From: Chamaelirium japonicum
Taxonomy: Eukaryota > Streptophyta > Magnoliopsida > Liliales > Melanthiaceae
Length of the DNA stretch: 64,000 nucleotides
Assembly (NCBI GenBank): GCA_947650365.1
Contig: OX393555.1
Span: 13,595,550 to 13,659,549 of the forward strand
Direction of reading: 5' to 3'
Shown here: positions 1-58,466 of the stretch, one piece after another
How the letters are laid out: every line of letters begins with the position of its first letter
How positions within the stretch are numbered: position 1 is the first letter of the stretch
The notes under the pieces: model-generated
Told to the model about the DNA's origin: nothing
Database searches by the model: none
Seen by the model: the letters and a program-made list of their open reading frames with translations, nothing else
Position numbers and translations under genes: made by a program

Positions 1-1652
1 CGCTCCAGTTCCCTGCGAGCTTCTCTTTCTTCATCGAGGGCCTTCTTCTTTGCCTCAACCCTCTGCTCGAGGGCTTGCCTCTGCTTTCGCTCTGCCTCAA
101 TCCTCTGCTCGAGGACCTGCCTCTGCTCTCGCTCCGCGTCTAGCGCAGACTGCAGCTGAGTGATAGCACCGGTCTGGGTGTCCCGTGCCCTCGAGCGCAT
201 ACCCTCTCGTCCAAAGTAGGAGGAGGGCGTGACTCCAAGGCCCGTACAGAGGACACGGCCGTGCGTGGCAGGTCTCAGCACAGTATCCATCGCTGAGTCG
301 ACAGATACTGAGCTGGAGGAGGAGCCGGCCTCACCCGACGGGGTCACCAGAAGTCGCATCCTCTCCTATATAAAAACAACCAATGATATTCAATGATATT
401 TTATGGCATATGTATAAGAATATATTAACAGTAATTTAATTACTTACCACTTGCGAGGCAACCCTGACCCTGTCGTCCAGAAATGCCCCATCGATACGCC
501 GCCTCCTAGAGGCCTCAAAAAGGTCAATCCTATTAGGCTCGTGGCCCAAGGACTGTGTCTGTTGGACATATAAAATAAATAGATGAGTTAATATAACATG
601 TATAGAGCTTTAAATAATAATAATGTTTGTATCATTTACCAGCTGCTGGGCAAGCTGGGGCATGGAGGTCCTCCCCTTCACTGGAGCAGGTGTCGTCGAG
701 GCACTTCTATTCTGCTTGCCTATAGCAGATTTCGCCTGTGTCAATCGATTAAATTTTGAAACATCAATACAAATTTTTAGTATAATATTAAAACAAGTAC
801 GAATCAACAAAATTATAATTATACCTGAAAGTGAGGGGTGGCCCAGTGAGCGACCAAAAACTGTAGAACGTGTAGCGGTGGCGCGTCTCTCGTCCCGGCC
901 GCAGCCTGTACCTCCTCAGCCGGCTGGCCGACCAAGTAACTGTAGAGCTGGTAGAGCTCGTGACGGTAATCCCTGTACCGCTCACCTATCATCTTCCACA
1001 AGTCCTCCCGATGGGTGTCGGTTTCCATGTTCTCCCATTTAAATTTCTCCTGTAAAATCAATTTAGAAATAAGTCATTTTATCAAATCAAATTATAAAGA
1101 AGTACAATATTATTCTAAAATGCTTTAATGAAACTAACGTACCAAAAACTGCCGATACATCCTCTCCTTATAGGATGCATCAATGTTCTTCCACCCCCTT
1201 AACCGCACAATCGGGGCATTTCTCTCCTCTCGTACTATAATACCGACCCACGTGGCGGCGTCAAAAGCGTGCTCGCCCACAAAGGTCCTGCCGCTCCACT
1301 GTAGAGAAAGCGGCTCGCGTAAGGTCGACAAGCGTCGGGCCGTCGTCACGCCCCGATCGCCTACGTGCCTGGTGATCCTCGACCTTGCAAATAAAATATA
1401 CATCAGTACTGAAGAAGTATTTGCAACATGTATAAAACTTTAGATCTAAACATTACCTGTGGGCGTAGACGCTGTAGCCGAGTGCTGAGCACTGCTCGAA
1501 GCTCCGGAGGCTGCGACCACATCAGGAGCTGGTGTGGAGAGAGGAACAGCACTACCAGATCCGGACGGCTCAGCCTCGGACCCTGGAGTGGCAGCCGGAG
1601 CGCTCCGAGCTACCCCACCCCTGCCTCTACGAACATATGACCGTGATGCCAT
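1..1652 (-). CDS. TNPA-like Ptta/En/Spm transposase (Transposase_24 family), outer copy, 3' end cut by window
   Basis: This is the second CACTA protein, of the plant Ptta/En/Spm (Transposase_24) type. In En/Spm such proteins bind subterminal repeats. By-eye exons on the minus strand are 1652-1457, 1383-1143, 1049-825, 735-640, 558-448 and 365 to below 1, with GT/AG boundaries shared with the inner copy. The ATG at 1652 follows an acceptor-like CAG and opens MASRSYVRRGRGG, a basic low-complexity start. The middle exons carry a tryptophan-rich part (ATWVGIIVREE, VAHWATPHF) and KSAIGKQNRSAST, the family's usual Lys/Asn/Arg segment. The last exon is a Glu/Arg/Gln coiled coil. By comparison with the inner copy, the stop codon lies about 50 bases beyond the window start. 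No break is seen in the visible exons. Function is inferred from family membership. Confidence 0.72.
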
Positions 1653-1659
1653 CTGAAAC

Positions 1660-1890
1660 AATTTAATTTACATATGAAACAGTAAGATTACATATAAAAC
1701 AATATGAAACAGATTGATTTACATATGAAACAGTATGATTTATGAAACAATATGAAACAGTTTGATTTACATATGAAACGGTATGATTTACATATGAAAT
1801 AGTATAAATTAATATGATATACATATGAAACAATATGATTTATATATGAAACAATTTGATTTAAATATGAAACAATTTGATTTACATACG
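1660..1890. repeat. Spacer between TNPA and TNPD made of degenerate ACATATGAAACA repeats
   Basis: About 230 bases of short imperfect repeats (ATATGAAACA, ATTTACATATGAAAC) separate the two genes of the outer element. The same repeat occurs in the inner element at 14041-14180 and 15262-15360, where it flanks the inserted satellite array. Open frames here are repeat artefacts. Confidence 0.8.
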
Positions 1891-1892
1891 GT

Positions 1893-4800
1893 CTAGTCAT
1901 TTTCTGTCTCATCTCTGTCACTCTCATCGTATCCCTCTTCTATCATTTGATCTGCATTCGCTGTCCAGTTTATATTGTCGACATCTTCATTTTCGTCATG
2001 CACTGCATCGACAATGATTATCTCATCATTCTGGTATGCATCCAAATCATCATCGACGACCCCCGCATCCTTGTCTCCCATGTCATAAAAATCTCTGGGT
2101 GGTGACCTGACTATAATTTGCCAACCTGGAGAGGTATTATCCGGTGCATAAAATATCTGTTACGCTTGAGATGCAAGAATGAATGGATCTTCATATTGGG
2201 TATTCAATCTCTTGCCAGTGTTGATGCTGATAAAACCGTATTTGTCGACATTATAACCAGTCCCGCGATTATTAACATCATACCAATCGCATTTGAATAA
2301 TACGATCCGATTTTGGCCAAGGAATTTAATCCCGAGAATCTCGTTGAGGACGCCGTAGAAGTCGATATTTTCTAATTCTTCTTGCTCACCGTTGACGATA
2401 ACCCCACTATTTTGGGTTCTTCGAGATTTTTCACTATCTTTCGTCCGAAATCTATAACCGTTCACGATATAACCATCGTACGATATTGCGTCCTGCAAAG
2501 GACTACAAGATAAGCGCCAGAGATCCTCATTCATCAACGGATTGTAGTTGTCGTGTAGCTCTTGTGCCTATAATAACCACATGACATTCATGATATGAAT
2601 ACATAATTATTGTTCAGTAATGGATGTCAATGAAATTCAGTAATGATATGAATACTTACGTGTTTCTCGAACCACGATGGGAATTCACGATCATGAATTT
2701 GGGGAGCATTTCGAGTACCCCGATTATTAATGATGGCTTTATGCTTCCTATTTTACAGGTTATGAATTAGATTATAATTAGCACATATACTTAATGAATG
2801 GACTGAAAGAATGAGTAAATGATCGTAAAATGCTTACTCAATAAATGGCCACACTTTATCACATTGGCGCAACACATACATATGTGCCTGTTGAATCTCA
2901 TCTACAGACAATTGACGGGTTTTGCCTCCTCCTACAGGTCTACCCATTTCGGCAAATATAGACAGACCCCCATCAAAGTCTATTGGACCACCGTCATAGT
3001 TCCGCTCAAGTTGATTGAATCGCGTGTCTATACCATGTAGGTATCTTGAGCAGAATGTTAGACATTCTTCTGCTAGGTATCCTTCAGCAATTGATCCCTC
3101 CGGACGACTTTTATTACGAACATATGATTTCAATGTTCGCAAGTACCTAATTTGAGAAAAAAATATTTGGATGAATATATCAAGAACGATAAAAAACATT
3201 GTGCGAATGAGACAAGAAGATTACCTCTCGATAAAATACATCCAGCGGTAATGAACTGGGCCACCGAGTTTGGCCTCATTTGCCAAGTGAACGGTCAAAT
3301 GCACCATGACATCAAAGAAGGAAGGTGGAAATATCATCTCTAGCTTGCACAATGTGAGCGCAATATCCCTCTCCATCTGTTCACGTTGGTCCACTCTAAG
3401 TACCTTCGAGCACAAGTGTCTGAAAAAAGTGCTGAGCTCAATTAACGGACCGGACACCTGTTCGGTTAAATTCCCACGTATAGCAAGAGATAACAATCGC
3501 TGCATAAGAACATGACAATCATGACTTTTTAATCCAGACAACTTCCGGCCGTTCTCTTGCACGCATCGTGCGATATTCGAAGAATAACCGTCTGGCGTTT
3601 TCACAGACCGTAGGAATGCACATAAGGCTGCCTTTTGCTGTGAGCTCATGGTGTAGCATGCAACTGGCAACACATACTTATCCCCAATCTCTTTGGGATG
3701 AAGTGATTTTCGGATGTCCAACTCCTTAAGATCGAGACGAGATTTAAGATTATCCTTCGCCTTACCGTCGAGATTCAGCAGTGTTCCTATAATGTTGTCA
3801 CACACATTTTTCTCGATATGCATGACATCCAAGTTATACCGCAAGAGTAGGCTGCTCCAGTACGGTAGTTTAAAGAAAATACTCTTCTTCTTCCAGTTAT
3901 GCTCACGCGTAGAATCTTCATGTGTTCTCTTCTTTTTACCTTTCCCAAGTGCCACGGCATCAAGCTGATCCAATTCGCACAAGACTTCTACCCCCGAAAG
4001 CTGCTCCGGGGCCTTTGCAAGTTCCTTCTTGCCGTTGAAAGCTCTTTTGTTCTGCCTCCACTTATGGCCGTCAACAAGGAATCTTTGATGGCCCATATAA
4101 CAGAACTTGCCTCCATTCTTCAACCGTAATGAATATGTCTCCTTATTGCATGTAGGGCACGCCAATTTTCCTTTAGTACTCCACCCGGATAAGTTGGCAT
4201 ATGCAGGAAAATCGTTGATGGTCCATAGAAGTGCCGTATGCATCCGAAAATTCTGGCGCAACGAGGCATCATACGTATTGGCCCTAACTTCCCATAACTC
4301 GTTCAACTCCTCAATTAACGGCTGCAAGTAAACGTCAATATCATTACCAGGCGACCTGGGTCCGGGAATGAGCAAGGAGAGCATTGTGTATGGCTTTTTT
4401 AAGCACATCCAGGGAGGCAAATTGTATGGAACTAGAACAACTGGCCAAATGTTGTACGACACACTCATATTCCCAAAGGGATTGAAGCCATCGCTAGCAA
4501 GCCCTAACCTGACGTTGCGAACTTCACATGCGAATTCAGGATAGGTATGATCAAAATCTTTCCACGTCAGAGAGTCGGCCGGATGTCTCATAATCCCATC
4601 ATCTGTATGTTCTCGTGTATGCCACCTCATGTGCTCAGCAGTCTTCGATGACATAAACAACATCTGAAGCCTGTCCCTAAGCGGGAAGTATAGGAGAACC
4701 TTTGTAGATACATTTTTCTTCCTTCGACTGGTACTAGACTCGGCATCCGTCTCTTTATATCTCGTTGCTCCGCATATGTGGCATGACCGTGCATGTTCGT

Positions 4801-5494
4801 ACTCTTTCCGGTACAACATACAATCGTTCACGCATGCATCAATTTTCTCATAACCCAGACCGAGATCTTTAATTGTCTTCTTTGCCTCGTAGAATGATTT
4901 CGGTACTGTCTCACCCATAGGAAAAGCCTCTTTCAGCAACTCTACCAATATATTAAATGACTTATTACTCCAACCATTGAGGCACTTCAAATGAAGAAGC
5001 TTTACAGTGAAAGAGAGTTTTGAAAACTTCTCACACCCCGGGTATAGAGGTTGTTCGGCATCTTTAAGCAATCTGTAGAACTTGTCCGCTTTGATATTGG
5101 GCTGATCACCTGACGGTGTTTCCGTGCCTATTCCACCTTGCAAATCATGTATCATATCCTGCATGTCATCGTCATCGTCTGTATTAATATTATCATCAGC
5201 GATTACTGTGTTTGAAGTTTCACCGTGAGCTGCCATGGGGACTGCATCTAGCTCCTCACCGTGCGAGAACCAACGGGTATAGCTAATGTCAATGCCACGC
5301 ATTACCAGATCAACCTCACATTCCTCTCGAACCTTCCTAGTCACCCTTCCGCAGTCTATACAGGGACACACAATTTTTCCATCAAGCGGTGCAAGACGCT
5401 CAAATGCAAAATCCAGAAATTTCCTGACTCCTTGTCTGTACTCTTGGCTCATGCGAATTGAATTACGCATCCAACTCTTATCGATCGAAGACAT
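1893..5494 (-). pseudogene. TNPD-like CACTA transposase, outer copy (one internal stop, promoter lost)
   Basis: This is the catalytic CACTA transposase. Minus-strand exons are 5494-3225, 3146-2838, 2747-2660 and 2567-1893. The large exon starts MSSIDKSWMRNS, a transposase-associated domain with the Cys cluster CPCIDC at residues 43-48. The Tnp2-type (Transposase_21) core follows, with RLGLASDGFNPFG near residue 335 and LDVMHIEKNVCDN near 554, which contain conserved Asp residues. A DUF4218 segment (FFDVMVHLTVHL, near 720) continues into exon 2. The last exon has a DUF4216 domain (KCDWYDVNNRG) and an acidic tail. An in-frame TAA at 2162-2160 replaces a Gln codon (CAA in the inner copy), removing the acidic tail. 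The start codon is 12 bases from the inner CACTA insertion at 5507, so the original 5' leader and promoter are now about 15.9 kb away. Confidence 0.88.
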
Positions 5495-5503
5495 CTTCGT
5501 CTA

Positions 5504-5506
5504 TCT
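5504..5506. other. Left target-site duplication TCT of inner CACTA
   Basis: TCT at 5504-5506 directly precedes CACTA and is repeated at 21379-21381 directly after TAGTG. The uninterrupted inner copy has a single TCT in CTATCTGGCTATAC (about 18971-18984). A 3-bp duplication is characteristic of CACTA transposition. Confidence 0.93.
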
Positions 5507-6060
5507 CACTACAAAAAAAACAGTTATTACCGACGGACAATATCCGTCGGTAATATTAAAATTCCGTCGGTAATGTTCTATAGCGACGGAAGATATTTCC
5601 GTCGCTGGCTGTCGGGAAAGAAGGCGTCGGGGAAAACAATATGACGGACCAAATATTACCGTCGGTAATAATAATTAATACCGACGGTAATATTAAAGCC
5701 GTCAGTAATATTTAATCAATTAAAAACTAATATAATATAGTATTACCGACGAAACATAAGAATACATCGGTAATATATAACCATTTTACCGACGGGTATA
5801 GTCTATACTGTCGGTAATACTATATATATTACCGACACATATATATATTACCCGTCGGTAATAATATATATATTACCGACAAAATTTATATAACCGTCGG
5901 TAATACTATATATATTACCGACGCATATATATATTACCCTTCGGTAATAATATATATATTACCGACGGATATTATATGCCGTCGGCACATTATTAATAAT
6001 TTAAAAAAAATAAAAATATTATTACCGACGGAATAATTAATTTCCGTCGGTAATAAGTAT
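5507..6060. repeat. Left terminal and subterminal repeat region of inner CACTA
   Basis: After the CACTA terminus comes a dense run of the near-palindromic motif TACCGACGG / CCGTCGGTA in both orientations, spaced by short AT-rich segments. In En/Spm-type elements such subterminal motifs are TNPA binding sites; that role here is inferred. The 58-bp hairpins of the right end are absent from this end. Confidence 0.88.
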
Positions 6061-6497
6061 GTTTTATTTTTTAATAAATTTACCTAAATAATGTTATTTA
6101 ATTCCTGTGATTCAATACCACAATATATTACCACAATTTATCAAATATTACCACAATTTATAAAATATTACCGCAAATTTTAAAATATTACCTAAATTGA
6201 TAAAAAAATTACAGCAAATTATCAAATATTACCACAGTTCCCGGCCGACAATTATAGAAAGAACAAAAAATAACCATATATTACAAAATAATATTTACAC
6301 AATCCAGAACTGAGAGATGATACATGTCCTATCTCAACCACCCCCGCCCGCCACCAACGCCGGTGCTCTCATCGATCCCCTGACGCCGCCCTATCTCAAC
6401 CACGCCCGCCCACCACCAACGCTGGTGCTCTCATCGATCCCCTGACGCCGCCCTGCTCCTGCAATTAACATGTATTTGTTAAAAAAATGGTTTATAT
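6061..6497. repeat. AT-rich stretch with ATTACCACAA repeats and a ~62-bp tandem duplication
   Basis: No gene is seen. Bases 6110-6240 contain repeated (A)ATATTACCACAA(TTT) words. Around 6330-6455 a unit of about 62 bases with CTCATCGATCCCCTGACG occurs twice in tandem. It links the subterminal region to the satellite array. Confidence 0.6.
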
Positions 6498-9400
6498 CTA
6501 TAACTGAGTCTAAGCGTTAAAAAATGATAAGTTAGCGTGTTTCGGTTTTGAAATAGGTTTGGATTCGATCCGATCGTAGAATTATCGGCATCCGATAATT
6601 CGAACTTGGAATTATTCCGTATTTCGGACTTGCGAGCGGGTTCTAATTGGATATTTGACCAATTTACGCTCCGATTCACCGATTTAGAGTCTAAGTGTTG
6701 AAAAATCATAACTTAGCGTGTTTCGGATATGAAATAGCTAGGTTTGGATTCGATCGGATCGTCATCGGATCGGCATTCAATAATTCGAACTTGGAATTAT
6801 TCCGTATTTCGGACTTGCGAGCGGGTTCTAATTGGATATTTGACCAATTTACGCTCCGATTCACCGATTTAGAGTCTAAGTGTTGGAAAATCATAAGTTA
6901 GCGTGTTTCGGATATGAAATAGGTTTGGATTCGATCCGATCGTCATCGGATCGGCATCCGATAATTCGAAGTTGGATTTATTCCGTATTTCGGACTTGCG
7001 AGCGGGTTCTAATTGGATATTTGACCAATTTACGCTCCGATTCACCGATTTAGAGTCTAAGTGTTGGAAAATCATAAGTTAGCGTGTTTCGGATATAAAA
7101 TAGGTTTGGATTCGATCCGATCGTCATCGGATCGGCATCCGATAATTCGAACTTGGAATTATTTCGTATTTCGGACTTGCGAGCGGGTTCTAATTGGATA
7201 TTTGACCAATTTACGTTCCGATTCACCGATTTAGAGTCTAAGTGTTGGAAAATCATAAGTTAGCGTGTTTCGGATATGAAATAGGTTTGGATTCGATCGG
7301 ATCATCATCAGATCGGCATCCGATAATTCGAACTTGGAATTATTCCGTATTGCGGACTTGCGAGCGGGTTCTAATTGGATATTTGACCAATTTACGCTCC
7401 GATTCACCGATTTAGAGTCTAAGTGTTGGAAAATCATAAGTTAGCGTGTTTCGGATATGAAATAGGTTTGGATTCGATCCGATCGTCATCGGATCGGCAT
7501 CCGGTAATTCAAAGTTGGAATTATTCCGTATTTCGGACTTGCGAGCGGGTTCTAATTGGATATTTGACTAATTTATGCTCCGATTCACCGATTTAGAGTC
7601 TAAGTGTTGGAAAATCATAAGTTAGCGTGTTTCGGATATAAAATAGGTTTGGATTCAATCCGATCGTCATCGGATCGGCATCCGATAATTCGAACTTGGA
7701 ATTATTCCGTATTTTGGACTTGCGAGCGGGTTCTAATTGGATATTTGACCAATTTACGCTCCGATTCACCGATTTAGAGTCTAAGTGTTGGAAAATCATA
7801 AGTTAGCGTGTTTCAGATATGAAATAGGTTTGGATTCGATCCGATCGTCATCGGATCGGCATCCGGTAATTCGAAGTTGGAATTATTCTGTATTTCGAAC
7901 TTGCGAGCGGGTTCTAATTGGATATTTGACCAATTTACGTTTCGATTCACCGATTTAGAGTCTAAGTGTTGGAAAATCATAAGTTAGCGTGTTTCGGATA
8001 TGAAATAGGTTTGGATTCGATCGGATCATCATCGGATCGGCATTCGATAATTCAAACTTGGAATTATTCCGTATTTCGGACTTGCGAGCGGGTTCTAATT
8101 GGATATTTGACCAATTTACGCTCCGATTCACCGATTTAGAGTCTAAGTGTTGGAAAATCATAAGTTAGCGTGTTTCGGATATGAAATAGGTTTGGATTCG
8201 ATCGGATCATCATCGGATCGACATCCGATAATTCGAACTTGGAATTATTCCGTAGTTCGGACATGCGAGCGGGTTCTAATTTGATATTTGACCAATTTAC
8301 GCTCCGATTCAACGATTTAGAGTCTAAGTGTTGGAAAATCATAAGTTAGCGTGTTTCGGATATGAAATAGATTTGGATTCGATCCGATCGTCATCGGATC
8401 GGCATCCGGTAATTCGAAGTTGGAATTATTCCGTATTTCGGACTTGCGAGCGGGTTCTAATTGGATATTTGACCAATTTACGCTCCGATTCACCGATTTA
8501 GAGTCTAAGTGTTGGAAAATCATAAGTTAGCGTGTTTCGGATATGAAATAGGTTTGGATTCGATCCTATCGTCATCGGATCGGCATCCGATAATTCGAAC
8601 TTGGAATTATTCCGTATTTCGGACTTGCGAGCGGGTTCTAATTGGATATTTGACCAATTTACGCTCCGATTCACCGATTTAGAGTCTAAGTGTTGGAAAA
8701 TCATAAGTTAGCGTGTTTCGGATATGAAATAGGTTTGGATTCGATCCGATCGTCATCGGATCGTCATCCGATAATTCGAACTTGGAATTATTCCGTATTT
8801 CGGACTTGCGAGCGGGTTCTAATTGGATATTTGACCAATTTACGCCCCGCTTCACCGATTTAGAGTCTAAGTGTTGGAAAATCATAACTTAGCGTGTTTC
8901 GGATATGAAATAGGTTTGGATTCGATCCGATCGTCATCGGATCGAAATCCGATAATTAGAACTTGGAATTATTCCGTATTTCGGACTTGCGAGCGGGTTC
9001 TAATTGGATATTTGACCAATTTACGTTCCGATTCACCGATTTAGAGTCTAAGTGTTGGAAAATCATAACTTAGCGTGTTTCGGATATGAAATAGGTTTGG
9101 ATTCGATCCGATCGTCATCGGATCGAAATTCGATAATTAGAACATGGAATTATTCCGTATTTCGGACTTGCGAGCGGGTTCTAATTGGATACTTGACCAA
9201 TTTACGCTCCGATTCACCGATTTAGAGTCTAAGTGTTGGAAAATCATAAGTTAGCGTGTTTCGGATATGAAATAGGATTGGATTCGATCCGATCGTCATC
9301 GGATCGGCATCCGATAATTCGAACTTGGAATTATTCCGTATTTCGGACTTGCGAGCGGGTTCTAATTGGATATTTGACCAATTTACGCTCCGCTTCACCG

Positions 9401-11858
9401 ATTTAGAGTCTAAGTGTTGGAAAATCATAACTTAGCGTGTTTCGGATATGAAATAGGTTTGGATTCGATCCGATCGTCATCCGATAATTCGAACTTGGAA
9501 TTATTCCGTATTTCGGACTTGCGAGCGGGTTCTAATTGGATATTTGACCAATTTACGCTCCGCTTCACCGATTTAGAGTCTAAGTGTTGGAAAATCATAA
9601 CTTAGCGTGTTTCGGATATGAAATAGGTTTGGATTCGATCCGATCGATATCGGATCGAAATCCGATAATTAGAACTTGGAATTATTTCGTATTTCGGACT
9701 TGCGAGCGGGTTCTAATTGGATATTTGACCAATTTACACTCCGATTCATCGATTTAGAGTTTAAGTGTTGGAAAATCATAAGTTAGCGTGTTTCGGATAT
9801 GAAATAGGTTTGGATTCGATCCGATCGTCATCGGATCGTCATCCGATAATTCGAACTTGGAATTATTCCGTATTTCGGACTTGCGAGCGGGTTCTAATTG
9901 GATATTTGACCAATTTACGCTCCGCTTCACCGATTTAGAGTCTAAGTGTTGGAAAATCATAACTTAGCGTGTTTCGGATATGAAATAGGTTTGGATTCGA
10001 TCCGATCGTCATCGGATCGAAATCCGATAATTAGAACTTGGAATTATTCCATATTTCGGACTTGCGAGCGGGTTCTAATTGGATATTTGACCAATTTACG
10101 TTCCGATTCACCGATTTAGAGTCTAAGTGTTGGAAAATCATAACTTAGCGTGTTTCGGATATGAAATAGGTTTGGATTCGATCCGATCGTCATCGGATCG
10201 AAATCCGATAATTAGAACTTGGAATTATTCCGTATTTCGGACTTGCGAGCGGGTTCTAATTGGATATTTGACAAATTTACGCTCCGATTCACCGATTTAG
10301 AGTCTAAGTGTTGGAAAATCATAAGTTAGCGTGTTTCGGATATGAAATAGGTTTGGATTCGATCCGTTCGTCATCGGATCGGTATCCGATAATTCGAACT
10401 TGGAATTATTCCGTATTTCGGACTTGCGAGCGGGTTCTAATTGGATATTTGACCAATTTACACTCCGCTTCACCGATTTAGAGTCTAAGTGTTGGAAAAT
10501 CATAACTTAGCGTGTTTCGGATATGAAATAGGTTTGGATTCGATCCGATCGTCATCCGATAATTCGAACTTGGAATTATTCCGTATTTCGGACTTGCGAG
10601 CGGGTTCTAATTGGATATTTGACCAATTTACGCTCTGATTCACCGATTTAGAGTCTAAGTGTTGGAAAATCATAAGTTAGCGTGTTTCGGATATGAAATA
10701 GGTTTGGATTCGATCCGATCGTCATCGGATCGGCATCCGATAATTCCAACTTGGAATTATTCCGTATTTCGGACTTGCGAGCGGGTTCTAATTGGATATT
10801 TGACCAATTTACGCTCCAATTCACCGATTTAGAGTCTAAGTGTTGGAAAATCATAAGTTAGCGTGTTTCGGATATGAAATAGGTTTGGATTCGATCCGAT
10901 CGTCATCGGATCGGCATCCGATAATTAGAACTTGGAATTATTCCGTATTTCGGACTTGCGAGCGGGTTCTAATTGGATATTTGACCAATTTACGATCCGA
11001 TTCACCGATTTAGAGTCTAAGTGTTGGAAAATCATAAGTTAGCGTGTTTCGGATATGAAATAGGTTTGGATTCGATCCGATCGTCATCGGATCGGCATCC
11101 AGTAATTCGAAGTTGGAATTATTCCGTATTTCGGACTTGCGAGCGGGTTCTAGTTGGATATTTGACCAATTTACGCTCCGATTCACCGATTTAGAGTCTA
11201 AGTGTTGGAAAATCATAAGTTAGCGTGTTTCGGATATGAAATAGGTTTGGATTCGATCCGATCGTCATCGGATCGGCATCCGATAATTAGAACTTGGAAT
11301 AATTCCGTATTTCGGACTTGCGAGCGGGTTCTAATTGGATATTTGACCAATTTACGCTCCGATTCACCGATTTATAGTCTAAGTGTTGGAAAATCATAAG
11401 TTAGCGTGTTTCGGATATGAAATAGGTTTGGATTCGATCCGATCGTCATCGGATCGGCATCCGATAATTCCAACTTGGAATTATTCCGTATTTCGGACTT
11501 GCGAGCGGGTTCTAATTGGATATTTGACCAATTTACGCTCCGCTTCACCGATTTAGAGTCTAAGTGTTGGAAAATCATAACTTAGCGTGTTTCGGATATG
11601 AAATAGGTTTGGATTCGATCCGATCGTCATCGGATCGACATCCGATAATTCCAACTTGGAATTATTTCGTATTTCGGACTTGCGAGCGGGTTCTAATTGG
11701 ATATTTGACCAATTTACGTTCCGATTCACAGATTTAGAGTCTAAGTGTTGGAAAATCATAACTTAGCGTGTTTCGGATATGAAATAGGTTTGGATTCGAT
11801 CCGATCGTCATCGGATCGGCATCCGATAACTTAGCGTGTTTCGGATATGAAATAGGTT
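6498..11858. repeat. 181-bp satellite array 1 (about 30 monomers)
   Basis: A head-to-tail array has a 181-base period; landmark positions are 6869, 7050, 7231, 8136, 8317 and 8498. Each monomer contains TTAGAGTCTAAGTGTTGG, CATAAGTTAGCGTGTTTC, a small inverted repeat CCGATCGTCATCGGATCGG and CTTGCGAGCGGGTTCTAA. Two monomers (near 9476 and 10552) lack 11 bases and are 170 long. They lie 1075 bases apart within a duplicated six-monomer block. 181 is not a multiple of 3, so the recurring 68-residue open frames change frame every unit and are not a coding repeat. The first monomer (6498-6700) is the most diverged and the last (about 11820-11858) is partial. Confidence 0.96.
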
Positions 11859-12396
11859 TTTGTAATTTTCCCCAATATAATATCTTACGTTTGACTTTGA
11901 TTAGTTTTAAAAATGTCCCCCTCTAGTTTGAAAATCCTTACAATTACACCCCTTCACTCATGCAATTGGTATAATCCTTATAATTAATTCTCTTCGTATA
12001 ATCGTAAAAAGTACCAATTGCATGAGTGAATTTAAAATAATTTGCATTTACAAAGCTTCAGTCAAAGTTTACCTATATGCCAGCATAACTGCAGAGATAG
12101 AAATCGAACTCCGTTGGGTGGCATATTGTTGTGTCCACTACAAATGTCACATGAGGGAGATATCCCTCTTCCAACGAGGCACACACCTAGCATGATTAAA
12201 AAACAAAATTCTATAATTTAAAAGAAAAACAGAGGCTACATCATTACCATGAGAGAGAGAGAGAGACCATTTACAATCCGATTTACCGATTTAGAGTCTA
12301 AGTGTTGGAAAATCATAAGTGTGATAATATGATCTAAACTCAAATTAGTAAGATTCATATTTTTTGCTAATATTATAAAGATTAGTAAGTACCTGA
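11859..12396. other. Non-coding spacer with a hairpin and a stray satellite fragment
   Basis: No gene is seen. A perfect 19-base inverted repeat (11953-11971 and 12012-12030, arm TTCACTCATGCAATTGGTA) with a 40-base loop could fold as a hairpin. It may be a MITE remnant, but its ends are not defined. A short (GA)n lies at 12249-12266. Bases about 12267-12320 are a 181-bp satellite fragment (TTAGAGTCTAAGTGTTGG) in array 1 orientation. Confidence 0.65.
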
Positions 12397-14030
12397 TCAT
12401 GAGGATGAGCCACCGCTAGACCGGCTTATGAATTCATTAAATTTACGCTCCAGTTCCCTGCGAGCTTCTCTTTCCTCATCGAGGGCCTTCTTCTCCGCCT
12501 CAACCCTCTGCTCGAGGGCCTGCCTCTGCTCTCGCTCCGCCTCCATCCTCTGCTCGAGGGCCTGCCTCTGCTCTCGCTCCGCGTCTAGCGCAGACTGCAG
12601 CTGAGTGATAGCACCGGTCTGGGTGTCCCGTGCCCTCGAGCGCATACCCTCTCGTCCAAAGTAGGAGGAGGGCGTCACTCCAAGGCCCGTACAGATACTG
12701 AGCTGGAGGAGGAGCCGGCCTCGCCCGACGGGGTCACCAGAAGTCGCATCCTCTCCTATATAAAAACAACCAATGATATTCAATGATATTTTATGGCATA
12801 TGTATAAGAATATATTAACAGTAATTTAATTACTTACCACTTGTGAGGCAACCCTGTCGTCCAGAAATGCCCCATCGATACGCCGCCTCCTAGAGGCCTC
12901 AAAAAGGTCAATCCTATTAGGCTCGTGGCCCAAGGACTGTGTCTGTTGGACATATAAAATAAATAGATGAGTTAATATAATATGTATAGAACTTTAAATA
13001 ATAACAATGTTTGTATCATTTACCAGCTGCTGGGCAAGCTGGGGCATGGAGGTCCTCCCCTTCACTGGAGCAGGTGTCGTCGAGGCACTTCTATTCTGCT
13101 TGCCTATAGCAGATTTTGCCTGTGTCAATCGATTAAATTTTAAAACATCAATATAAATTTTTAGTATAACATTAAAACAAGTACGAATCAACAAAATTAT
13201 AATTATACCTGAAAGCTAGGGGTGGCCCAGTGAGCGACCAAAAACTGTAGAATGTGTAGCGGTGGCGCATCTCTCGTCCCGGCCGCAGCCTGTACCTCCT
13301 CAGCCGGCTGGCCGACCAAGTAACCGTAGAGCTGGTAGAGCTCGTGACGGTAATCCCTGTACCGCTCACCCATCGTCTTCAACAAGTCCTCCCGATGGGT
13401 GTCGGTTTCCATGTTCTCCCATTTAAATTTCTCCTGTAAAATCAATTTAGAAACAAGTCATTTTATCAAATCAAATTATAAAGAAGTACGATATTATTCT
13501 AAAATACTTTAATGAAACTAACGTACCAAAAACTGCTGATACATCCTCTCCTTATAGGATGCATCAATATTCTTCCACCCCCTTAACCCCACAATCGGGG
13601 TATTCCTCTCCTCCCGTACTATCATGCCGACCCACGTGGCGGCGTCAGAAGCGTGCTCGCCCACAAAGGTCCTGCCGCTTCACTGTAAGGGCAGCGGCTC
13701 GCGTAAGGCCGACAAGCACCGGGCCGTCGTCACGCCCCGGTCGCCTACGTGCCTGGTCGACCCTGCAAATAAAATATACATCAGTACTGAAGAAGTATTT
13801 ACAACATGTATAAAACTTTAGATCTAAACATTACCTGTGGGCGTAGACGCTGTAGCCGAGTGCTGAGCACTGCTCGAAGCTCCGGAGGCTGCGACCACAG
13901 CAGGAGCTGGTGTAGAGAGAGGAACAGCACTACCAGATCCGGACGGCTCAGCCTTGGACCCTGGGGTGGCAGCCGGAGCGCTCCGAGCACCCCTGCCTCT
14001 GCCTCTACGAACATATAACCGTGATGCCAT
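12397..14030 (-). CDS. TNPA-like Ptta/En/Spm transposase, inner copy
   Basis: This is the inner counterpart of the outer TNPA-like gene. By-eye minus-strand exons are 14030-13835, 13762-13527, 13433-13209, 13119-13024, 12942-12838 and 12755-12397 (stop at 12399-12397). The protein starts MASRLYVRRGRGRG, carries the conserved tryptophan-rich and KSAIGKQNRSAS segments, and ends in a coiled coil of repeated AEREQRQALEQR units followed by a Ser/Gly tail. Relative to the outer copy it has lost 54 bases at about 12692, between two ACAGA words, and 6 bases in the preceding exon. Both losses keep the frame. No stop or frameshift is evident in the exons, so this may be the more usable of the two proteins. 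Its likely role is binding the subterminal CCGTCGGTA motifs, inferred from En/Spm. Confidence 0.74.
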
Positions 14031-14040
14031 CTGAAACAAT

Positions 14041-15360
14041 TTAATTTACATATGAAACAGTAAGATTTACATATGAAACAATATGGAACAGTTTTATTTA
14101 CATATGAAACAGTATGATTTACATATGAAACAATATGAAACAATATGAACCCGCTCGCAATATGAAACAATATGAAACAATATGAAACACTTAGACTCTA
14201 AATCGGTGAATCGGATCGTAAATTGGTCAAATATCCAATTAGAACCCGCTCGCAAGTCCGAAATACGGAATAATTCTAACTTCGAATTATCGGATGCCGA
14301 TCCGATGACGATCGGATCGAATCCAAACCTATTTCATATCCGAAACACGCTAACTTATGATTTTCCAACACTTAGACTCTAAATCGGTGAATCGGAGTGT
14401 AAATTGGTCAAATATCAAATTAGAACCCGCTCGCAGGTCCAGAATACGGAATAATTCCAAGTTCGAATTATCGGATGCCGATCCGATGATGATCCGATCG
14501 AATCCAAACCTATTTCATATCCGAAACACGCTAACTTATGATTTTCCAACACTTAGACTCTAAATCGGTGAATCGGAACGTAAATTGGTCAAATATCCAA
14601 TTAGAACCCGCTCGCAAGTCCGAAATACGGAATAATTCTAACTTCGAATTAGCGGATGCCGATCCGATGACGATCAGATCGAATCCAAACCTATTTCATA
14701 TCCGAAACACGCTAACTTATGATTTTCCAACACTTAGACTCTAAATCGGTGAATCGGAGCGTAAATTGGTCAAATATCCAATTAGAACCCGCTCGCAAGT
14801 CCGAAATACGGAATAAATCCAACTTCGAATTATCGGATGCCGATCCGATGACGATCGGATCGAATCCAAACCTATTTCATATCCGAAACACGCTAACTTA
14901 TGATTTTCCAACACTTAGACTCTAAATCGGTGAATCGGAGCGTAAATTGGTCAAATATCCAATTAGAACCAGCTCGCAAGTCCGAAATACGGAATAAATC
15001 CAACTTTGAATTATCAGATGCCGATCCGATGATGATCGGATCGAATCCAAACCTATTTCATATCCGAAACACGCTAACTTATGATTTTCCAACACTTAGA
15101 CTCTAAATCAGTGAATCGGAGCGTAAATTGGTCAAATATCCAATTAGAACCCGCTCGCAAGTCCGAAATATGGAGTAATTCCAAGTTCGTATTATCGGAT
15201 GCCGATCCGATGATGATAGGATCGAATCCAAACCTATTTCATATCCGAAACACGCTAACTTATTGTTTTACATATAAAACAATATGATATACATATGAAA
15301 CAATATGATTTATATATGAAACAATTTGATTTAAATATGAAACAATTTGATTTACATACG
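14041..15360. repeat. 181-bp satellite array 2 (six monomers, reversed) set in the ATATGAAACA spacer
   Basis: The spacer of ACATATGAAACA repeats (14041-14180 and 15262-15360) is split by six 181-bp satellite monomers at about 14187-15261. They run opposite to array 1, so the same 68-residue frames now read on the plus strand. A 13-base scrap of the satellite (AACCCGCTCGCAA) lies at 14148-14160 inside the spacer, apart from the array. The outer element has the spacer but no satellite. Confidence 0.93.
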
Positions 15361-15362
15361 GT

Positions 15363-18300
15363 CTAGTCAATTTCTGTCTCATCTCTGTCACTCTCATCGC
15401 TTCCCTCTTCTATTATTTGATCTGCATTCGCTGTCCAGTTTATATTGTCGACATCTTTATTTTCGTCGTGCACTGCGTCGACAATGATTATCTCATCATT
15501 CTGGTATGCATCCAAATCATCATCGACGACCCCCGCATCCTTGTCTCCCATGTCGTAAAAATCTCTGGGTGGTGACCTGACTACAATTTGCCAACCTAGA
15601 GAGGTATTATCCGGTGCATAAAATATCTGTTGCGCTTGAGAGGCAAGAATGAATGGATCTTCATATTGGGTATTCAATCTCTTGGCAGTGTTGATGCTGA
15701 TAAAACCGTATTTGTCGACATTATAACCAGTCCCGCGATTATTAACATCATACCAATCGCATTTGAATAATACGATCCGATTTTGCCCAAGGAATTTAAT
15801 CTCGAGAATCTCGTTGAGGACGCCGTAGAAGTCGATATTTTCTAATTCTTCTTGCTCACCGTTGACGACAACCCCACTATTTTGGGTTCTTCGTGATTTT
15901 TCACTATCTTTCGTCCGAAATCTATAACCGTTCACGATATAACCATCGTACGATATTGTGTCTTGCAAAGGACTACAAGATAAGCGCCAGAGATCCTCAT
16001 TCATCAGCGGATCGTGGTTGTCGTGCAGCTCCTGTGCCTATAATAACCACACGACATTCATGATATGAACACATAATTATTGTTCGGTAATGGATGTCAA
16101 TGAAATTCAGTAATGATGTGAATACTTACGTGTTTCTCGAACCACGATGGGAATTCACGATCATGAATTTGGGGAGCATTTCGAGTACCCCGATTATTAA
16201 TGATGGCTTTATGCTTCCTGTTTTACCGGTTATGAATTAGATTATAATTAGCACATATACTTAATGAATGGACTGAAAGAATGAGTAAATGATCATAAAA
16301 TGCTTACTCAATGAATGGCCACACTTCATCACATTGGCGCAACACATACATATGTGCCTGTTGAATCTCATCTACAGACAATCGACGGGTTTTGCCTCCT
16401 CCTACAGGTCTACCCATTTCGGCAAATATAGACAGACCCCCATCGAAGTCTATTGGACCACCGTCATAGTTCCGCTCAAGTTGATTGAATCGCGTGTCTA
16501 TACCATGTAGGTATCTTGAGCAGAATGTTAGACATTCTTCTGCTAGGTATCCTTCAGCAATTGATCCTTCCGGACGACTTTTATTACGAACATATGATTT
16601 CAATGTTCGCAAGTACCTAATTTGAGAAAAAAATATTTGGATGAATATATCAAGAACGATCAAATACATTGTGCGAATGAGACGAGACGATTACCTCTCG
16701 ATAAAATACATCCACCGGTAATGAACTGGGCCGCCGAGTTTGGCCTCATTTGCCAAGTGAACAGTCAAATGCACCATGACATCAAAGAAGGAAGGTGGAA
16801 ATATCATCTCTAACTTGCACAATGTGAGCGCAATATCCCTCTCCATCTGTTCAAGTTGGTCCACTCTAAGTACCTTCGAGCACAACTGTCTGAAAAAAGT
16901 GCTCAGCTCAATTAACGGACCGGACACCTCTTCGGTTAAATTCCCACGTATAGCAAGAGATAACAATCGTTGCATAAGAACATGACAATCGTGGCTCTTT
17001 AATCCAGACAACTTCCGGCCGTTCTCTTGCACGCATCGTGCGATATTCGAAGAATAACCGTCTGGCGTTTTCACAGACCGTAGGAATGCACATAAGGCTG
17101 CCTTTTGCTGTGAGCTCATGGTGTAGCATGCAACTGGCAACACATACTTATCTCCAATCTCTTGGGGATGAAGTGATTTTCGGATGCCCAACTCCTTAAA
17201 ATCGAGACGAGATTTAAGATTATCCTTCGTCTTACCGTCGAGATTCAGCAGTGTTCCTATAATGTTGTCACACACATTTTTCTCGATATGCATGACATCC
17301 AAGTTATGCCGCAAGAGTAGGCTGCTCTAGTACGGTAGTTTAAAGAAAATACTCTTCTTCTTCCAGTTATGCTCATGCGTAGAATCTTCATGCGTTCTCT
17401 TCTTTTTACCTTTTCCAAGTGCCGTGGCATCAAGCTGATCCAATTCGCACAAGACTTCTACCCCCGAAAGCTGCTCCGGGGCCTTTGCAAGTTCCTTCTT
17501 GCCGTTGAAAGCTCTTTTGTTCTGCCTCCACTTATGGCCGTCAACAAGGAATCTTCGATGGCCCATATAACAGAACTTACCTCCGTTCTTCAACCGTAAT
17601 GAATCTATCTCCTTATTGCATGTAGGGCACGCCAATTTTCCTTTAGTACTCCACCCGGATAAGTTGGCATATACAGGAAAATCGTTGATGGTCCATAGAA
17701 GTGCCGCATGCATCCGAAAATTCTGGCGCAACGAGGCATCATACGTATCGGCCCCAACTTCCCATAACTCTTCAACTCCTCAATCAACGGCTGCAAGTAA
17801 ACGTCAATATCATTACCAGGCGACCTGGGTCCGGGAATGAGCAAGGAGAGCATTGTGTATGGCTTTTTTAAGCACATCCAGGGAGGCAAATTGTATGGAA
17901 CTAGGACAACTGGCCAAATGCTGTACGACACACTCATATTCCCAAAGGGATTGAAGCCATCGCTAGCAAGCCCTAACCTGACGTTGCGAACTTCACATGC
18001 GAATTCAGGATATGTATGATCAAAATCTTTCCACGTCAGAGAGTCGGCCGGATGTCTCATAATCCCGTCATCTGTACGTTCTCGTGCATGCCACCTTATG
18101 TGCTCAGCAGTCTTCGATGACATAAACAACCTCTGAAGCCTGTCCCTGAGCGGGAAGTATAGGAGAACCTTTGCAGATACATTTTTCTTCCTTCGACTGG
18201 TACTAGACTCGGCATCCGTCTCTTTATATCTCGTTGCTCCGCATATGTGGCATAACCGCGCATGTTCGTACTCTTTCCGGTACAACATACAATCGTTCAC

Positions 18301-18963
18301 GCATGCATCAATTTTCTCATAACCCAGACCGAGATCTTTAATTGTCTTCTTCGCCTCGTAGAATGATTTCGGTACTGTCTCACCCATAGGAAAAGCCTCT
18401 TTCAGCAACTCTACCAACATATTAAATGACTTATTACTCCAACCATTGAGGCACTTCAAATGAAGAAGCTTTACAGTGAAAGAGAGTTTTGAAAACTTCT
18501 CACACCCCGGGTATAGAGGTTGTTCGGCATCTTTAAGCAATCTGTAGAACTTGTCCGCTTCGATATTGGGCTGATCACCTGACGGTGTTTCCGTGCCTAT
18601 TCCACCTTGCAAATCATGTATCATACCCTGCATGTCATCGTCATCGTCTGTATTAATATTATCATCAGCGATCACTGTGTTTGAAGTTTCACCGTGAGCT
18701 GCCATGGGGACTGCATCTAGCTCCTTACCGTGCGAGAACCAACGGGTATAGGTAATGGCAATGCCACGCATTACCAGATCAACCTTACATTCCTCTCGAA
18801 CCTTCCTAATCACCCTTCCGCAGTCTATACAGGGACACACAATTTTTCCATCAAGCGGTGCAAGATGCTCAAATGCAAAATCCAGAAATTTCCTGACTCC
18901 TTCTCTGTACTCTTGGCTCATGCGATTCGAATTACGCATCCAACTCTTATCGATCGAAGACAT
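15363..18963 (-). pseudogene. TNPD-like CACTA transposase, inner copy (frameshift and stop)
   Basis: It has the same exon plan as the outer transposase: minus-strand exons 18963-16695, 16616-16308, 16217-16130 and 16037-15363. The domains are the same: N-terminal Cys cluster, Tnp2 core, DUF4218 and DUF4216 (KCDWYDVNNRG). Two lesions disable the main exon. One G present in the outer copy is missing near 17770, shifting the frame. A Trp codon has become TAG at 17329-17327. The last exon is intact and lacks the stop that breaks the outer copy, so it shows the full acidic C-terminus (DESDRDETEID). Unless another element supplies transposase, this copy should be immobile. Confidence 0.9.
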
Positions 18964-19566
18964 CTTCGTCTATCTGGCTATACAACACCTGAAGTAATTT
19001 CAAACAATGCTATAAGACTCCGCACAAATTCGGTTTCGGTTCCCGGGTATGGAACACGGAACCGAAACTTCTACAGGCCTTTAAAACTCAAGGATAAACT
19101 TTGCAAGACAGTAATAATACTCGCAATTCTATATCAATGGATAAGACCTAAGAATCCCATGGAAAATTAGAATGAGAGAATTGATCGCGATTCTCCAGGT
19201 CATTCTAAAAGAACCCCAAATATTACCAAGAATAGTAGGAAAAGATGGACTATACTTAGGGCACTAATTGCCCAATAGTGAAGTAGTTAAGTAGTGATTA
19301 CTTCACGACTTCTTGCTAATAGTGTAGTAGTTTGCATGCTTTATAGGAACTATAAGTCGATCATGTTTTAATCGCGACTAATTCAGGAAACGTTAACTAC
19401 GCGACTCTTTCTCGAATATTTGAATTGTTCTTGGTCCCGATCGCTCACTTCATTACACGTGTGGCGATTCACATATCGGGCGCACCCCACCGGATGGTTG
19501 TGACGCACATGTCGTCGTGTCGTTCATTTCGTCATATAATTAAAAGACTCTCTTTCAATATAACTG
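18964..19566. promoter_or_regulatory. Upstream region of inner TNPD gene
   Basis: This is about 600 non-coding bases between the transposase start and the tRNA gene. The first 110 bases match the outer element at 21379-21485, which shows they are part of the ancestral element. A transposase promoter is expected here from gene position, but I see no clear TATA box. Confidence 0.4.
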
Positions 19567-19647
19567 GTGGACGTGCCGGAGTGGTTATCGGGCATGACTA
19601 GAAATCATGTGGGCTTGCCCGCGCAGGTTCGAATCCTGCCGTCCACG
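19567..19647 (+). tRNA. trnS-AGA: tRNA-Ser (AGA anticodon)
   Basis: The acceptor arms GTGGACG and CGTCCAC pair, with discriminator G at 19647. The anticodon arm CATGA-CTAGAAA-TCATG gives anticodon AGA. A long variable arm (GGGC-TT-GCCC) identifies a class II Ser tRNA, and the T arm is CAGG-TTCGAAT-CCTG. The B box GGTTCGAATCC and an A box (TGCCGGAGTGG) are present, and a long T run follows directly at 19648, a normal Pol III terminator. The length is 81 bases; the variable loop is one T shorter than I recall for nuclear plant Ser-AGA genes. It lies inside the inner CACTA element and is absent from the matching part of the outer one. Confidence 0.93.
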
Positions 19648-20341
19648 TTTTTTTTTTTTCATTTTGAGTTTTAAGGGAAAAATTTAAAACCCTCTTCTAC
19701 TTCTTCTAGGGAAAAATTTTAGGGGGACTTATGTTTGGATACGCTCCGTTTCCAGGATTCTGGAAGCCCAGAATTCCTAAAAAAGATAAAGAGCCTGTTT
19801 GGATACAACCTGATCCCAAAAAGTGTTTTTGTGGAGAGCCTGTTTGTGAACTCAGACTGTGGAACAGTAGAAATTAAACTACCACCCTTAGATCATCGAA
19901 TTGTTTAATTCTCCCTTCAGCAAATGCATTGCTTCTTTCATAGGACAACAAGTGAAATGAAAATCGATTTAAGCCTTCCAAAATTTTCAACATTAACAAT
20001 ATATCATACGGAGGACTTATCCGCTTCAGCCAGACTTGGGGTAGCCCGATCCAAAACCATGATAAAATTTGAAAGAAAAAGCCGAATAGAATGTTTGTAC
20101 CAAAAAAGGATGGTTTTGACTCACAACTATTTGGTGTTTGGACATATCCCACAAACTAATCACAATTAGACATACCCAATAATAAAAATATGGTATTTAG
20201 GCCTAACTCCTTAGAAAATATACTGGAAGTTCGGCAAGCAATATACTGGAAAAAAATAAAAGCTTCTGCCATGAGAATCCAATTTTATCTGGAAAGAGAG
20301 ATAACTGTGAATAGTCAAAAATCAGTTAAGATCTACATGCC
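19648..20341. other. Non-coding stretch of inner CACTA with tRNA terminator
   Basis: It begins with a 12-13 base T run (Pol III stop) after the tRNA. A short near-duplicate GAGCCTGTTTG(GAT/TGA) occurs at 19790 and 19836. No gene is convincing. The 81- and 92-codon frames here overlap on opposite strands and match nothing I recognise. Confidence 0.5.
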
Positions 20342-20578
20342 ATGGGAGGAGGAGGAGCTCACCGGGGGGAGGAGGAGGAGGAGGATCTCACCGGCCGGAG
20401 CCCACGAGGAGGAGGAGGAGCTTGCCGCCGAAGCTTGCCGTCGGTCGATCGGTCGGCCGGAGGGACGCGACGCGAGGGAGGCCGGGGAGGGGGGGAGGGA
20501 GGCCGGGGAGGGGGGGGAGGCCGGGGAGGGGACGAGGGAGGCCGGGGAGGGGGGGAGGGAGGCCGGGGAGGGGGGGAG

Positions 20579-20613
<35 letters not shown>

Positions 20614-20660
20614 GGGAGGTTAGATTGAAACAGAACAGAAGGGGGGGGGATCGCTGGATT
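20342..20660. repeat. GGA/GA-rich low-complexity block, inner CACTA
   Basis: The block has GGAGGAGGA runs, a repeated GGGAGGCCGGGGAGGGG word and a (GA)n tract near 20581-20612. The same block, shortened, is at 22586-22860 in the outer element, so it belongs to the family. Its long plus-strand frames (Gly/Glu/Arg only) are composition artefacts. Confidence 0.8.
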
Positions 20661-20675
20661 TAATTTGAGACAGGT

Positions 20676-21378
20676 TTTTTACCGACGGACATCTTTACCT
20701 CCGTCGGTAAAAATAACCTTTATACCGACGGAAACCTATTCTCCGTCGGTACAAAGCGACGACGAAACTCAGGCTCCATTTTTTTCCAGAGGCTTGGTTT
20801 TACCCTGAGTTTCGTCGTGATATTTTTACCGACGGAGATATATTGTCCGTCGGCATATACCGACGGAAAAATAAGTTCCGTCGGTAAAAATCACCGACGA
20901 AACTCAGGGTTCCATTTTTCCAGAGGCTCGGTTTTTACCCTGAGTTTCGTCGGGACAATTTTACCGACGGATATTTATTTACCGTCGGTATCGTGCCGAC
21001 GGCAATAAAATTTCCGTCGGTATAATTAGTTATACCGACGGCGATATAAAGTCCGTCGGTAAAACTCTCCGACGGAACTCAGGGTCACATTTTTCTCCAG
21101 AGGCTCGGTTTTTACCCTGAGTTTCGTCGTGACATTTTACCGACGGTATTTATGTAGCCGTCGGTATAAAGTATATTACCGACGGGACATATATGTACCG
21201 TCGGTATAAATATTTATACCGACGAAATCTATTTGACCGTCGGTAATAAATGTGCAAAAAAAAATTAAAAAATTAAAGTTATAATACCGACGGATATTAT
21301 AGTCACCGTCGGTAAAAAGTGTATTATTACCGACGGTGATAAAAATATCCGTCGGTAAAGACCCTCTTTCTTGTAGTG
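20676..21378. repeat. Right terminal and subterminal repeats of inner CACTA with three hairpins
   Basis: Dense TACCGACGG/CCGTCGGTA motifs run to the terminal TTCTTGTAGTG. Three imperfect hairpins with arms GACGAAACTCAGG and CCTGAGTTTCGTC lie at about 20757-20818, 20896-20953 and 21068-21130, each with a loop containing CCAGAGGCTCGG or a close variant. The subterminal motifs are probable TNPA sites; the hairpins have no known role that I can name. Confidence 0.88.
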
Positions 21379-26615: not shown

Positions 26616-26662
<47 letters not shown>

Positions 26663-35529: not shown

Positions 35530-35582
<53 letters not shown>

Positions 35583-38500: not shown

Positions 38501-38757
38501 AGGTTGAGCTTGACTAGATAATATTTTATCTCTGTTGATAATTTCTCTTTCTTTGCTTTTTAATAAAAATATTTTTTGAAAAATCAAATTTAAAAGATTC
38601 CCCTCTTGTTTCTCCCTCCTTCTTGTTTTTCATATTAGAGAGCGTAGAAGCCCTGTGAGATCCCAAATTGGTGTAATTAATTTACCAGACCCAAAACCCT
38701 CTTCATTTTCTCATTTCACACCCCAGGGATCGGTCTTCATATTTCTGGGGCGTGACA
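34595..38757 (+). repeat. 3' LTR (4163 bp)
   Basis: It starts TGTAACACCTGTGG and ends GCGTGACA, followed by the CAACT duplication. It matches the 5' LTR apart from the 2.1-kb duplication and scattered substitutions. It has the same TATA-like motif (about 35437) and GA-rich leader. Confidence 0.93.
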
Positions 38758-41250: not shown

Positions 41251-42172
<922 letters not shown>

Positions 42173-48995: not shown

Positions 48996-49049
48996 TCTAT
49001 CTTTTTTGAGTTTCTAATATCTACAACATACAAACTATCTAATTCAATA

Positions 49050-56239: not shown

Positions 56240-56253
56240 TCATTGGATGATTC

Positions 56254-58452: not shown

Positions 58453-58466
58453 TCATTGGATGATTC

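What the first reader, a model, noticed from the sequence alone, without database searches (positions are those of the whole stretch)
6498..15261. A 181-bp satellite amplified inside a DNA transposon, in two opposed arrays
About 30 monomers lie at one side of the inner CACTA and six more, reversed, between its two genes; a 54-base piece (12267-12320) and a 13-base scrap (14148-14160) lie elsewhere in it. The outer copy's visible part lacks the satellite. The monomer length is in the range of plant centromeric satellites. The element could have captured a satellite, or could be its birthplace and carrier.
Basis: partly seen in the sequence, partly recalled or inferred. Interest (0 to 1): 0.8.

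Follow-up and report, generated by a model that had tools for sequence, protein, structure and literature searches.

The report
Satellite carried inside a jumping gene
A plant DNA transposon carries a short DNA sequence repeated dozens of times inside itself, and copies of this transposon seem to account for nearly all of the roughly 50,000 copies of that repeat in the assembled genome, so the repeat looks like cargo that multiplied inside the transposon rather than a centromere repeat it picked up.

Summary
Window 5507-21378 is a complete CACTA transposon (TSD TCT, tnp2 transposase) with about 29.5 units of 181 bp near its 3' side (6506-11859) and 6 reversed units between its genes (14186-15272). 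The outer copy also has the long array (37 units), just outside the window; it lacks only the reversed one.

The satellite belongs to the transposon. Genome-wide tags: 49,904 units, 1,415 long-array left junctions, 1,212 transposase tags, 589 reversed-array junctions. A looser tag gave 52,574, so there is no large pool diverged by up to about 12%. All 12 places found by satellite sequence and read with flanks were this CACTA. The 54-base piece is the array's own gene-side end, parted from it by filler DNA.

Arrays grow locally. One copy holds a 29-unit block three times at nearly 100% identity. Another site repeats a 3.3-3.5 kb unit made of about 280 bp of CACTA plus 17-18 units.

The closest known case is a quinoa CACTA with 32.5 units of 171 bp at the same place; the sequences are unrelated. 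New here: the linked opposed second array and the whole-genome accounting. Capture of a centromeric satellite is not supported, though unassembled centromeres and other species could not be examined.

The parts
5507..21378 (-). Inner CACTA element, 15,872 bp, genes read on the minus strand (5' end at 21378)
   Evidence: CACTACAAAA at 5507 and TTTCTTGTAGTG ending at 21378; flanking TCT/TCT
5504..5506 (.). Target-site duplication TCT, left copy
21379..21381 (.). Target-site duplication TCT, right copy
6506..11859 (+). Long array: about 29.5 units of 181 bp, two spacings of 170 and one of 185, plus a 34-bp piece at 11826-11859
11860..12268 (.). Filler sequence (409 bp here) between the array and its gene-side end; 49-205 bp of its gene-side part are present in 7 other sampled copies, none in the outer copy and C241, and C7_36.82 is deleted there
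12269..12320 (+).
   Evidence: the end ...AATCATAAGT directly before the second gene region is shared by 5 of 11 copies (inner, outer, C241, C1_87.5, C2_83.03); in outer and C241 the array reaches it without a break
12321..14027 (-). Second gene region (perhaps TnpA-like, from memory of En/Spm; coiled-coil ORF 12397-12825, no Pfam family reaches its cut-off)
14028..14185 (.). 21-bp minisatellite between the genes, holding a 13-bp satellite scrap at 14148-14160
14186..15272 (-). Reversed array: 6.0 units of the same satellite in opposite orientation
15273..18975 (-). tnp2-type transposase gene
   Evidence: 97% identical to the outer copy, whose ORFs match Transpos_assoc, Transposase_21, DUF4218 and DUF4216; the inner ORF 15363-16037 matches DUF4216
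1..5506 (-). Outer copy of the same family, left part; its left end and 37-unit long array lie upstream in locus L009
21379..23597 (-). Outer copy, right part, ending GTAGTG

Best explanation
The 181-bp satellite is a built-in part of one young, abundant CACTA family. The long array on the 3' side moves with the element to new sites (shown by shared junctions and target duplications). It lengthens and shortens in place, with duplicated blocks of units (shown); unequal exchange or slippage is the inferred cause. A second array, in reverse, sits in a 21-bp minisatellite between the two genes in many copies. It was probably pasted there by template switching at short homologies during repair of a transposon gap, and then inherited (inferred). 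In this assembly the transposon is the only carrier found. Sometimes the array grows together with a piece of its CACTA flank into a larger complex repeat, which looks like a first step towards a free satellite (structure shown, direction inferred).
For: Left junction in 11 of 11 sampled copies; same layout in 9 of 9 further places. Perfect 3-bp TSDs in 4 of 4 complete copies. Tag counts: 49,904 units, 1,415 left junctions, 1,212 tnp2 tags, i.e. 35 units per junction; sampled copies hold a median of 33 and a mean of 41 (11 copies); five stepped junctions head arrays of 32 to at least 55 units. Looser tag 52,574: ratio 1.053 against 1.036 in the sampled copies. On C1, 7 of 7 satellite clusters in the capped list (first 7.24 Mb) are this CACTA: five by an exact left junction nearby, two by fetched flanks. 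Of 10 best-match clusters on C1, 9 have an exact left junction within 7.6 kb and the tenth shows the CACTA flank. 46 of 56 reversed-array junctions on C1 have an exact left junction 4.4-20.9 kb away on the same strand; chance expectation 0.6. Growth: C2 array of 107 units with a 5,249-bp (29-unit) block three times at 99-100% in most 500-bp windows; L037 repeats of about 280 bp CACTA plus 17-18 units. Long-array units differ less within a copy than between copies in 10 of 11 copies.
Against: The unit has no detectable match elsewhere in the element, so birth from the element's own sequence is not shown. Only 49 of 73 exact tnp2 tags on C1 have an exact left junction within 35 kb, so some copies may lack the array; at least 7 of the other 24 do carry the satellite. 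In copy C1_87.5 units differ as much within as between copies (4.1 against 4.0%). The genome has 3,253 contigs; centromeric arrays may be missing. One 10-kb stretch (L034) is array throughout and its far end was not read. The nearly identical C2 blocks could be an assembly artefact. Template switching rests on my reading of junctions.
Confidence: 0.8

Rival explanations
1. The element captured an existing centromeric, knob or dispersed satellite and spread it.
For: Monomer length fits plant satellites (recalled). The unit is unlike the rest of the element. The family does hold foreign-looking filler (11860-12268). The authors of the quinoa case prefer capture for their array (PMC8978399, passages seen).
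Against: No free array was found: unit counts match junction counts, and 12 of 12 flanked places found by satellite sequence are CACTA. No large diverged pool up to 3 mismatches in 24.
Confidence: 0.17
2. The opposed arrays work as a unit: a transcript crossing both forms a long hairpin that feeds small RNAs and limits or tunes the transposon.
For: Opposed arrays 95-96% complementary over 1,087 bp. Both genes are on one strand with one array between them and one after them. 589 reversed-array junctions against 1,415 long-array junctions.
Against: No expression or small-RNA data. The outer copy lacks the reversed array, and 52 of 100 exact left junctions on C1 have no reversed-array junction (up to 1 mismatch) within 25 kb. 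The reversed array varies from 1 to 14 units.
Confidence: 0.12
3. The arrays are neutral cargo that accumulates because the element tolerates length; they have no role. This is compatible with the best explanation and concerns function only.
For: Long arrays vary from 22 to 107 units. Within-copy homogenisation is modest.
Against: No sampled copy has lost the long array, but the sample was chosen by satellite sequence, so this is weak.
Confidence: 0.6

Closest known systems
CACTA-like element with captured satDNA in Chenopodium quinoa (Belyayev et al. 2022, PMC8978399; outline and passages seen)
   Same: Element of 16,523 bp with one array of 5,550 bp, 32.5 units of 171 bp, close to the 3' end; found in elements on further scaffolds; dispersed FISH signal.
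   Different: Monomer unrelated. No second reversed array is described in the passages seen. There a related satellite exists in C. sosnowskyi without connection to CACTA; here no free array was found.
CACTA Jozin / CficCl-61-40 satellite in Chenopodium (Belyayev et al. 2020, PMC7320549; parts 1-2 of 5 read)
   Same: A CACTA family giving rise to a satellite.
   Different: There a ~40-bp unit derives from tnp2 sequence; here the 181-bp unit matches no other part of the element.
Tetris foldback transposon, Drosophila virilis (Dias et al. 2014, PMC4079207; abstract, outline and one section read)
   Same: Internal tandem repeats of about 220 bp, in its terminal inverted repeats and hence opposed, that seed longer satellite arrays.
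   Different: Arrays lie in the terminal inverted repeats of an apparently non-autonomous element; here they are internal to an element with transposase genes.

Membership tests
CACTA (En/Spm) superfamily | Terminal CACTA inverted repeats | tested here: met
   CACTACAA... / ...TTGTAGTG at both ends of the 4 copies with both ends in hand
CACTA (En/Spm) superfamily | 3-bp target-site duplication | tested here: met
   TCT, AAT, GAT and GAC in 4 of 4 copies with both ends in hand
CACTA (En/Spm) superfamily | tnp2-type transposase | tested here: met
   Transposase_21 E 3e-99 with Transpos_assoc, DUF4218 and DUF4216 in the outer copy; DUF4216 in the inner
CACTA (En/Spm) superfamily | Subterminal repeats | tested here: met
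   Direct and inverted copies of the TTACCGACGG type in both end regions
Satellite DNA | Head-to-tail units in very high copy number | tested here: met
   49,904 to 52,574 tags, about 9-9.5 Mb by arithmetic
Satellite DNA | Long arrays outside transposons | tested here: inconclusive
   None found; counts are explained by element copies, but the assembly may lack centromeres and only part was read with flanks
Centromeric satellite | CENH3 chromatin or primary-constriction location | not testable with these tools
   No ChIP or FISH; left junctions lie from 0.49 to 116.8 Mb of C1, where the capped list stops
3'-array CACTA of the quinoa type | Array of 160-185-bp units near the 3' end of a tnp2 CACTA | tested here: met
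   Layout compared with the passages
3'-array CACTA of the quinoa type | Homologous monomer | tested here: not met
   Local score 9, below the shuffled mean of 12.4; 200 of 200 shuffles score as high
Foldback elements | Repeats inside the terminal inverted repeats | tested here: not met
   Arrays start about 1.0 kb and 8.7 kb inside the left end

The most novel reading that the evidence does not exclude
This CACTA family is both the birthplace and the sole carrier of a roughly 50,000-copy satellite, seen while complex arrays that still bear a CACTA fingerprint are being formed (L037). Its opposed second array could give each copy that has it a hairpin-forming transcript that couples the satellite to control of the transposon.
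Probability: 0.3. Interest if true: 0.65.

Novelty: new variant of a known kind. Interest (0 to 1): 0.45.

Why it matters
How a new satellite starts is an old question, and good intermediates are rare. This family gives about 1,400 dispersed replicates of one array at different lengths, with fixed flanks that serve as fingerprints, and at least one place where the array multiplies together with its flank. That makes birth, growth and escape of a satellite directly countable. It also warns that a plant repeat of centromere-like length and high copy number can be transposon cargo.

Tried and rejected
Capture of a centromeric satellite: rejected as first choice (counts, flanks). Birth from element coding sequence, as in Jozin: no match. 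Kinship with the quinoa 171-bp unit: none. Open reading frame through the array: 181 is not a multiple of 3 and all six frames have stops. An 'empty reversed-array site' count (2,615) was uninformative: the pattern also hits the minisatellite of copies that have the array (e.g. C1:428485, beside reversed units at 428653-430143). Distance between units by separation showed no clear trend. Diagnostic sites between the two arrays: only one alignment column differs by more than 0.3, so I could not tell which array came from which. Pfam for the second gene: nothing above cut-off. Literature searches: (9 of 10); as far as titles and the shown beginnings of abstracts tell, none concerns this family or an opposed pair of arrays in CACTA. 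PMC9659126: passages only. Monomer divergence used 284 units of 150-200 bp (227 long-array, 57 reversed); units that my fuzzy splitter merged were dropped, although the tag finds 450 in the same copies. My array merging bridged gaps up to 60 bp, so the long arrays of C1_87.5 and C2_83.03 include about 50 bp of filler. The first gene tree held 506 bp of the outer copy in the inner row; it was redone.

Full report
WHAT IS THERE. The window lies at G000:C7:13595550-13659549 in an unnamed 1.52-Gb genome, by my inference a plant. Window 5507-21378 is a complete CACTA element: CACTACAA... to ...TTGTAGTG with TCT on both sides. It sits in another copy of the same family (1-5506 and 21379-23597; 95-97% identical in long blocks). 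Both genes read on the minus strand. Pfam finds Transpos_assoc, Transposase_21, DUF4218 and DUF4216 in the outer copy's gene, and DUF4216 in the inner ORF 15363-16037. The second gene has a coiled-coil ORF and no family at cut-off. The long array, 6506-11859, lies on the 3' side of both genes; the reversed array, 14186-15272, lies between them.

All coordinates hold. One inference changes: the outer copy does carry the long array, 37.2 units, in the 10 kb upstream of the window. It lacks only the reversed array. The 54-base piece is the array's own gene-side end. In the outer copy and C241 the array reaches ...AATCATAAGT directly before the second gene region without a break. In the inner copy, C1_87.5 and C2_83.03 filler of 409, 53 and 49 bp stands between array and end piece. 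In C10_29.6, C9_59.09, C1_52.97, C3_35.2 and C12_34.35 the array stops at 118-205 bp of filler, and the end piece and the first 32 bases of the gene region are gone. In C7_36.82 the region is deleted. The filler's gene-side end is nearly constant and its array-side end varies, so the array border has moved in the filler more than once.

OTHER COPIES. I fetched nine further places chosen by best satellite match. In 9 of 9 the arrays sit at the same two places of the same CACTA: the long array has 22 to 107 units, the reversed one 1 to 14. Three more places that had a satellite but no exact left junction in the list were also CACTA (L029, L030, L031). So 12 of 12 places found by satellite sequence and read with flanks are this element. 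Two short loci, L007 and L008, are almost all array, each with a piece of the element's filler. The left junction is found with up to 3 mismatches in 11 of 11 copies.

COUNTS (up to 3 mismatches; reversed-pattern controls 0). Unit 40-mer 49,904. Long-array left junction 1,415. Reversed-array junction 589. tnp2 tag 1,212. Looser unit 24-mer 52,574. That is 35 units per left junction. Eleven sampled copies hold 27-114 (median 33, mean 41). Five left junctions taken at steps through the C1 list (entries 10, 30, 50, 70, 90 of 100) head long arrays of 40.3, 37.3, at least 55.1, 32.3 and 54.2 units. At 33-44 units each, 1,415 arrays would hold about 47,000-62,000, which brackets the total. The 24-mer to 40-mer ratio is 1.053 in the genome and 1.036 in the sampled copies, which leaves no large pool diverged by up to 3 in 24. 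By arithmetic the satellite is about 9-9.5 Mb, 0.6% of the assembly.

LINKAGE. On C1, 46 of 56 listed reversed-array junctions (up to 1 mismatch; 7 beyond 117 Mb left out because the capped left-junction list ends at 116.8 Mb) have an exact left junction 4.4-20.9 kb away on the same strand, against 0.6 expected. From the other side, 48 of 100 exact left junctions have such a partner (three of them, in L037, share one), so about half of the copies lack it or have diverged there. Of 73 exact tnp2 tags below 116.8 Mb, 49 have an exact left junction within 35 kb. At least 7 of the other 24 carry the satellite: 431825, 5071330 and 104122103 by satellite hits or fetched flanks, and 8709153, 85147395, 86702087 and 104570215 by a reversed-array junction within 5 kb on the same strand. 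Exact matching thus undercounts; for the other 17 I cannot tell.

HOW THE ARRAYS CHANGE. Pooled, long-array units differ by 2.6% within a copy and 3.7% between copies; the pool is weighted by C2_83.03 (57 of 227 units). Copy by copy, within is lower than between in 10 of 11 (C1_87.5 is the exception). Units of the two arrays of one copy differ by 3.7%, about as much as across copies (3.9%). So the two arrays of one copy do not visibly convert each other. The C2 copy holds a 29-unit block (5,249 bp) three times at 99-100% in most 500-bp windows; an assembly artefact cannot be excluded. In the inner copy a block repeats at lag 1,075 bp with 98.7% identity over 900 bp. At C1:89.27 Mb three left junctions lie 3,329 and 3,509 bp apart: about 280 bp of CACTA left region plus 17-18 monomers, two whole units and the start of a third in the 8 kb read, 95-100% alike in the windows that align fully. 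This is a complex repeat carrying the fingerprint of its source. It is the only same-strand cluster of left junctions closer than 15 kb among the 100 listed.

THE SECOND ARRAY. It lies in the 21-bp minisatellite. By eye, its left junction shares AACA with the minisatellite, and satellite scraps are mixed with minisatellite units on both sides. This looks like template switching at short homologies. PMC8978399 refers to the capture mechanism of Rubin and Levy (passage); applying it here is inference. The outer copy has the longest branch in the transposase tree and differs from the other ten by 2.5-3.5%; the others differ by 1.1-2.4%, save one pair of partly fetched genes at 3.9%. It lacks the second array. 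That fits a later gain, but one copy cannot exclude loss.

KNOWN RELATIVES. The nearest published case I found is a 16.5-kb quinoa CACTA with 32.5 units of 171 bp near its 3' end (PMC8978399, passages). Length, copy number and place are strikingly alike; the sequences are unrelated. The parallel hints that the 3' side of CACTA elements tolerates, or favours, such arrays. Jozin (PMC7320549) and Tetris (PMC4079207) show transposon-born satellites by other routes.

VERDICT. A real, well-defined case of a satellite as transposon cargo: a new variant of a known kind. Carrier is shown; birthplace is likely; capture of a centromeric satellite is not supported; any role of the opposed pair is open.

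Noticed in passing
L037 (G000:C1:89270000-89277999): Higher-order tandem of about 280 bp of CACTA left region plus 17-18 satellite units, two whole units and the start of a third.
   Followed up: partly
L020-L022 (G000:C2:83.03 Mb): A 107-unit array with a 29-unit block repeated three times at nearly 100% identity: very recent growth or an assembly effect.
   Followed up: partly
11860-12268: Filler of unknown origin whose gene-side end is nearly constant while its array-side end varies from copy to copy (49 to 409 bp).
   Followed up: partly
25668-31978 and 34594-38757: Long direct repeats of 2.1-3.4 kb at 97-98% identity, apparently a tandem or segmental duplication.
   Followed up: no
46674-47787: A separate 65-bp tandem array, 17 copies, 74% matches.
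   Followed up: no
41995-42170: Perfect TA run of 88 units.
   Followed up: no
20345-20610: GC-rich tandem blocks near the element's 5' end, perhaps a promoter or control region; similar blocks at 22620-22806 in the outer copy.
   Followed up: no
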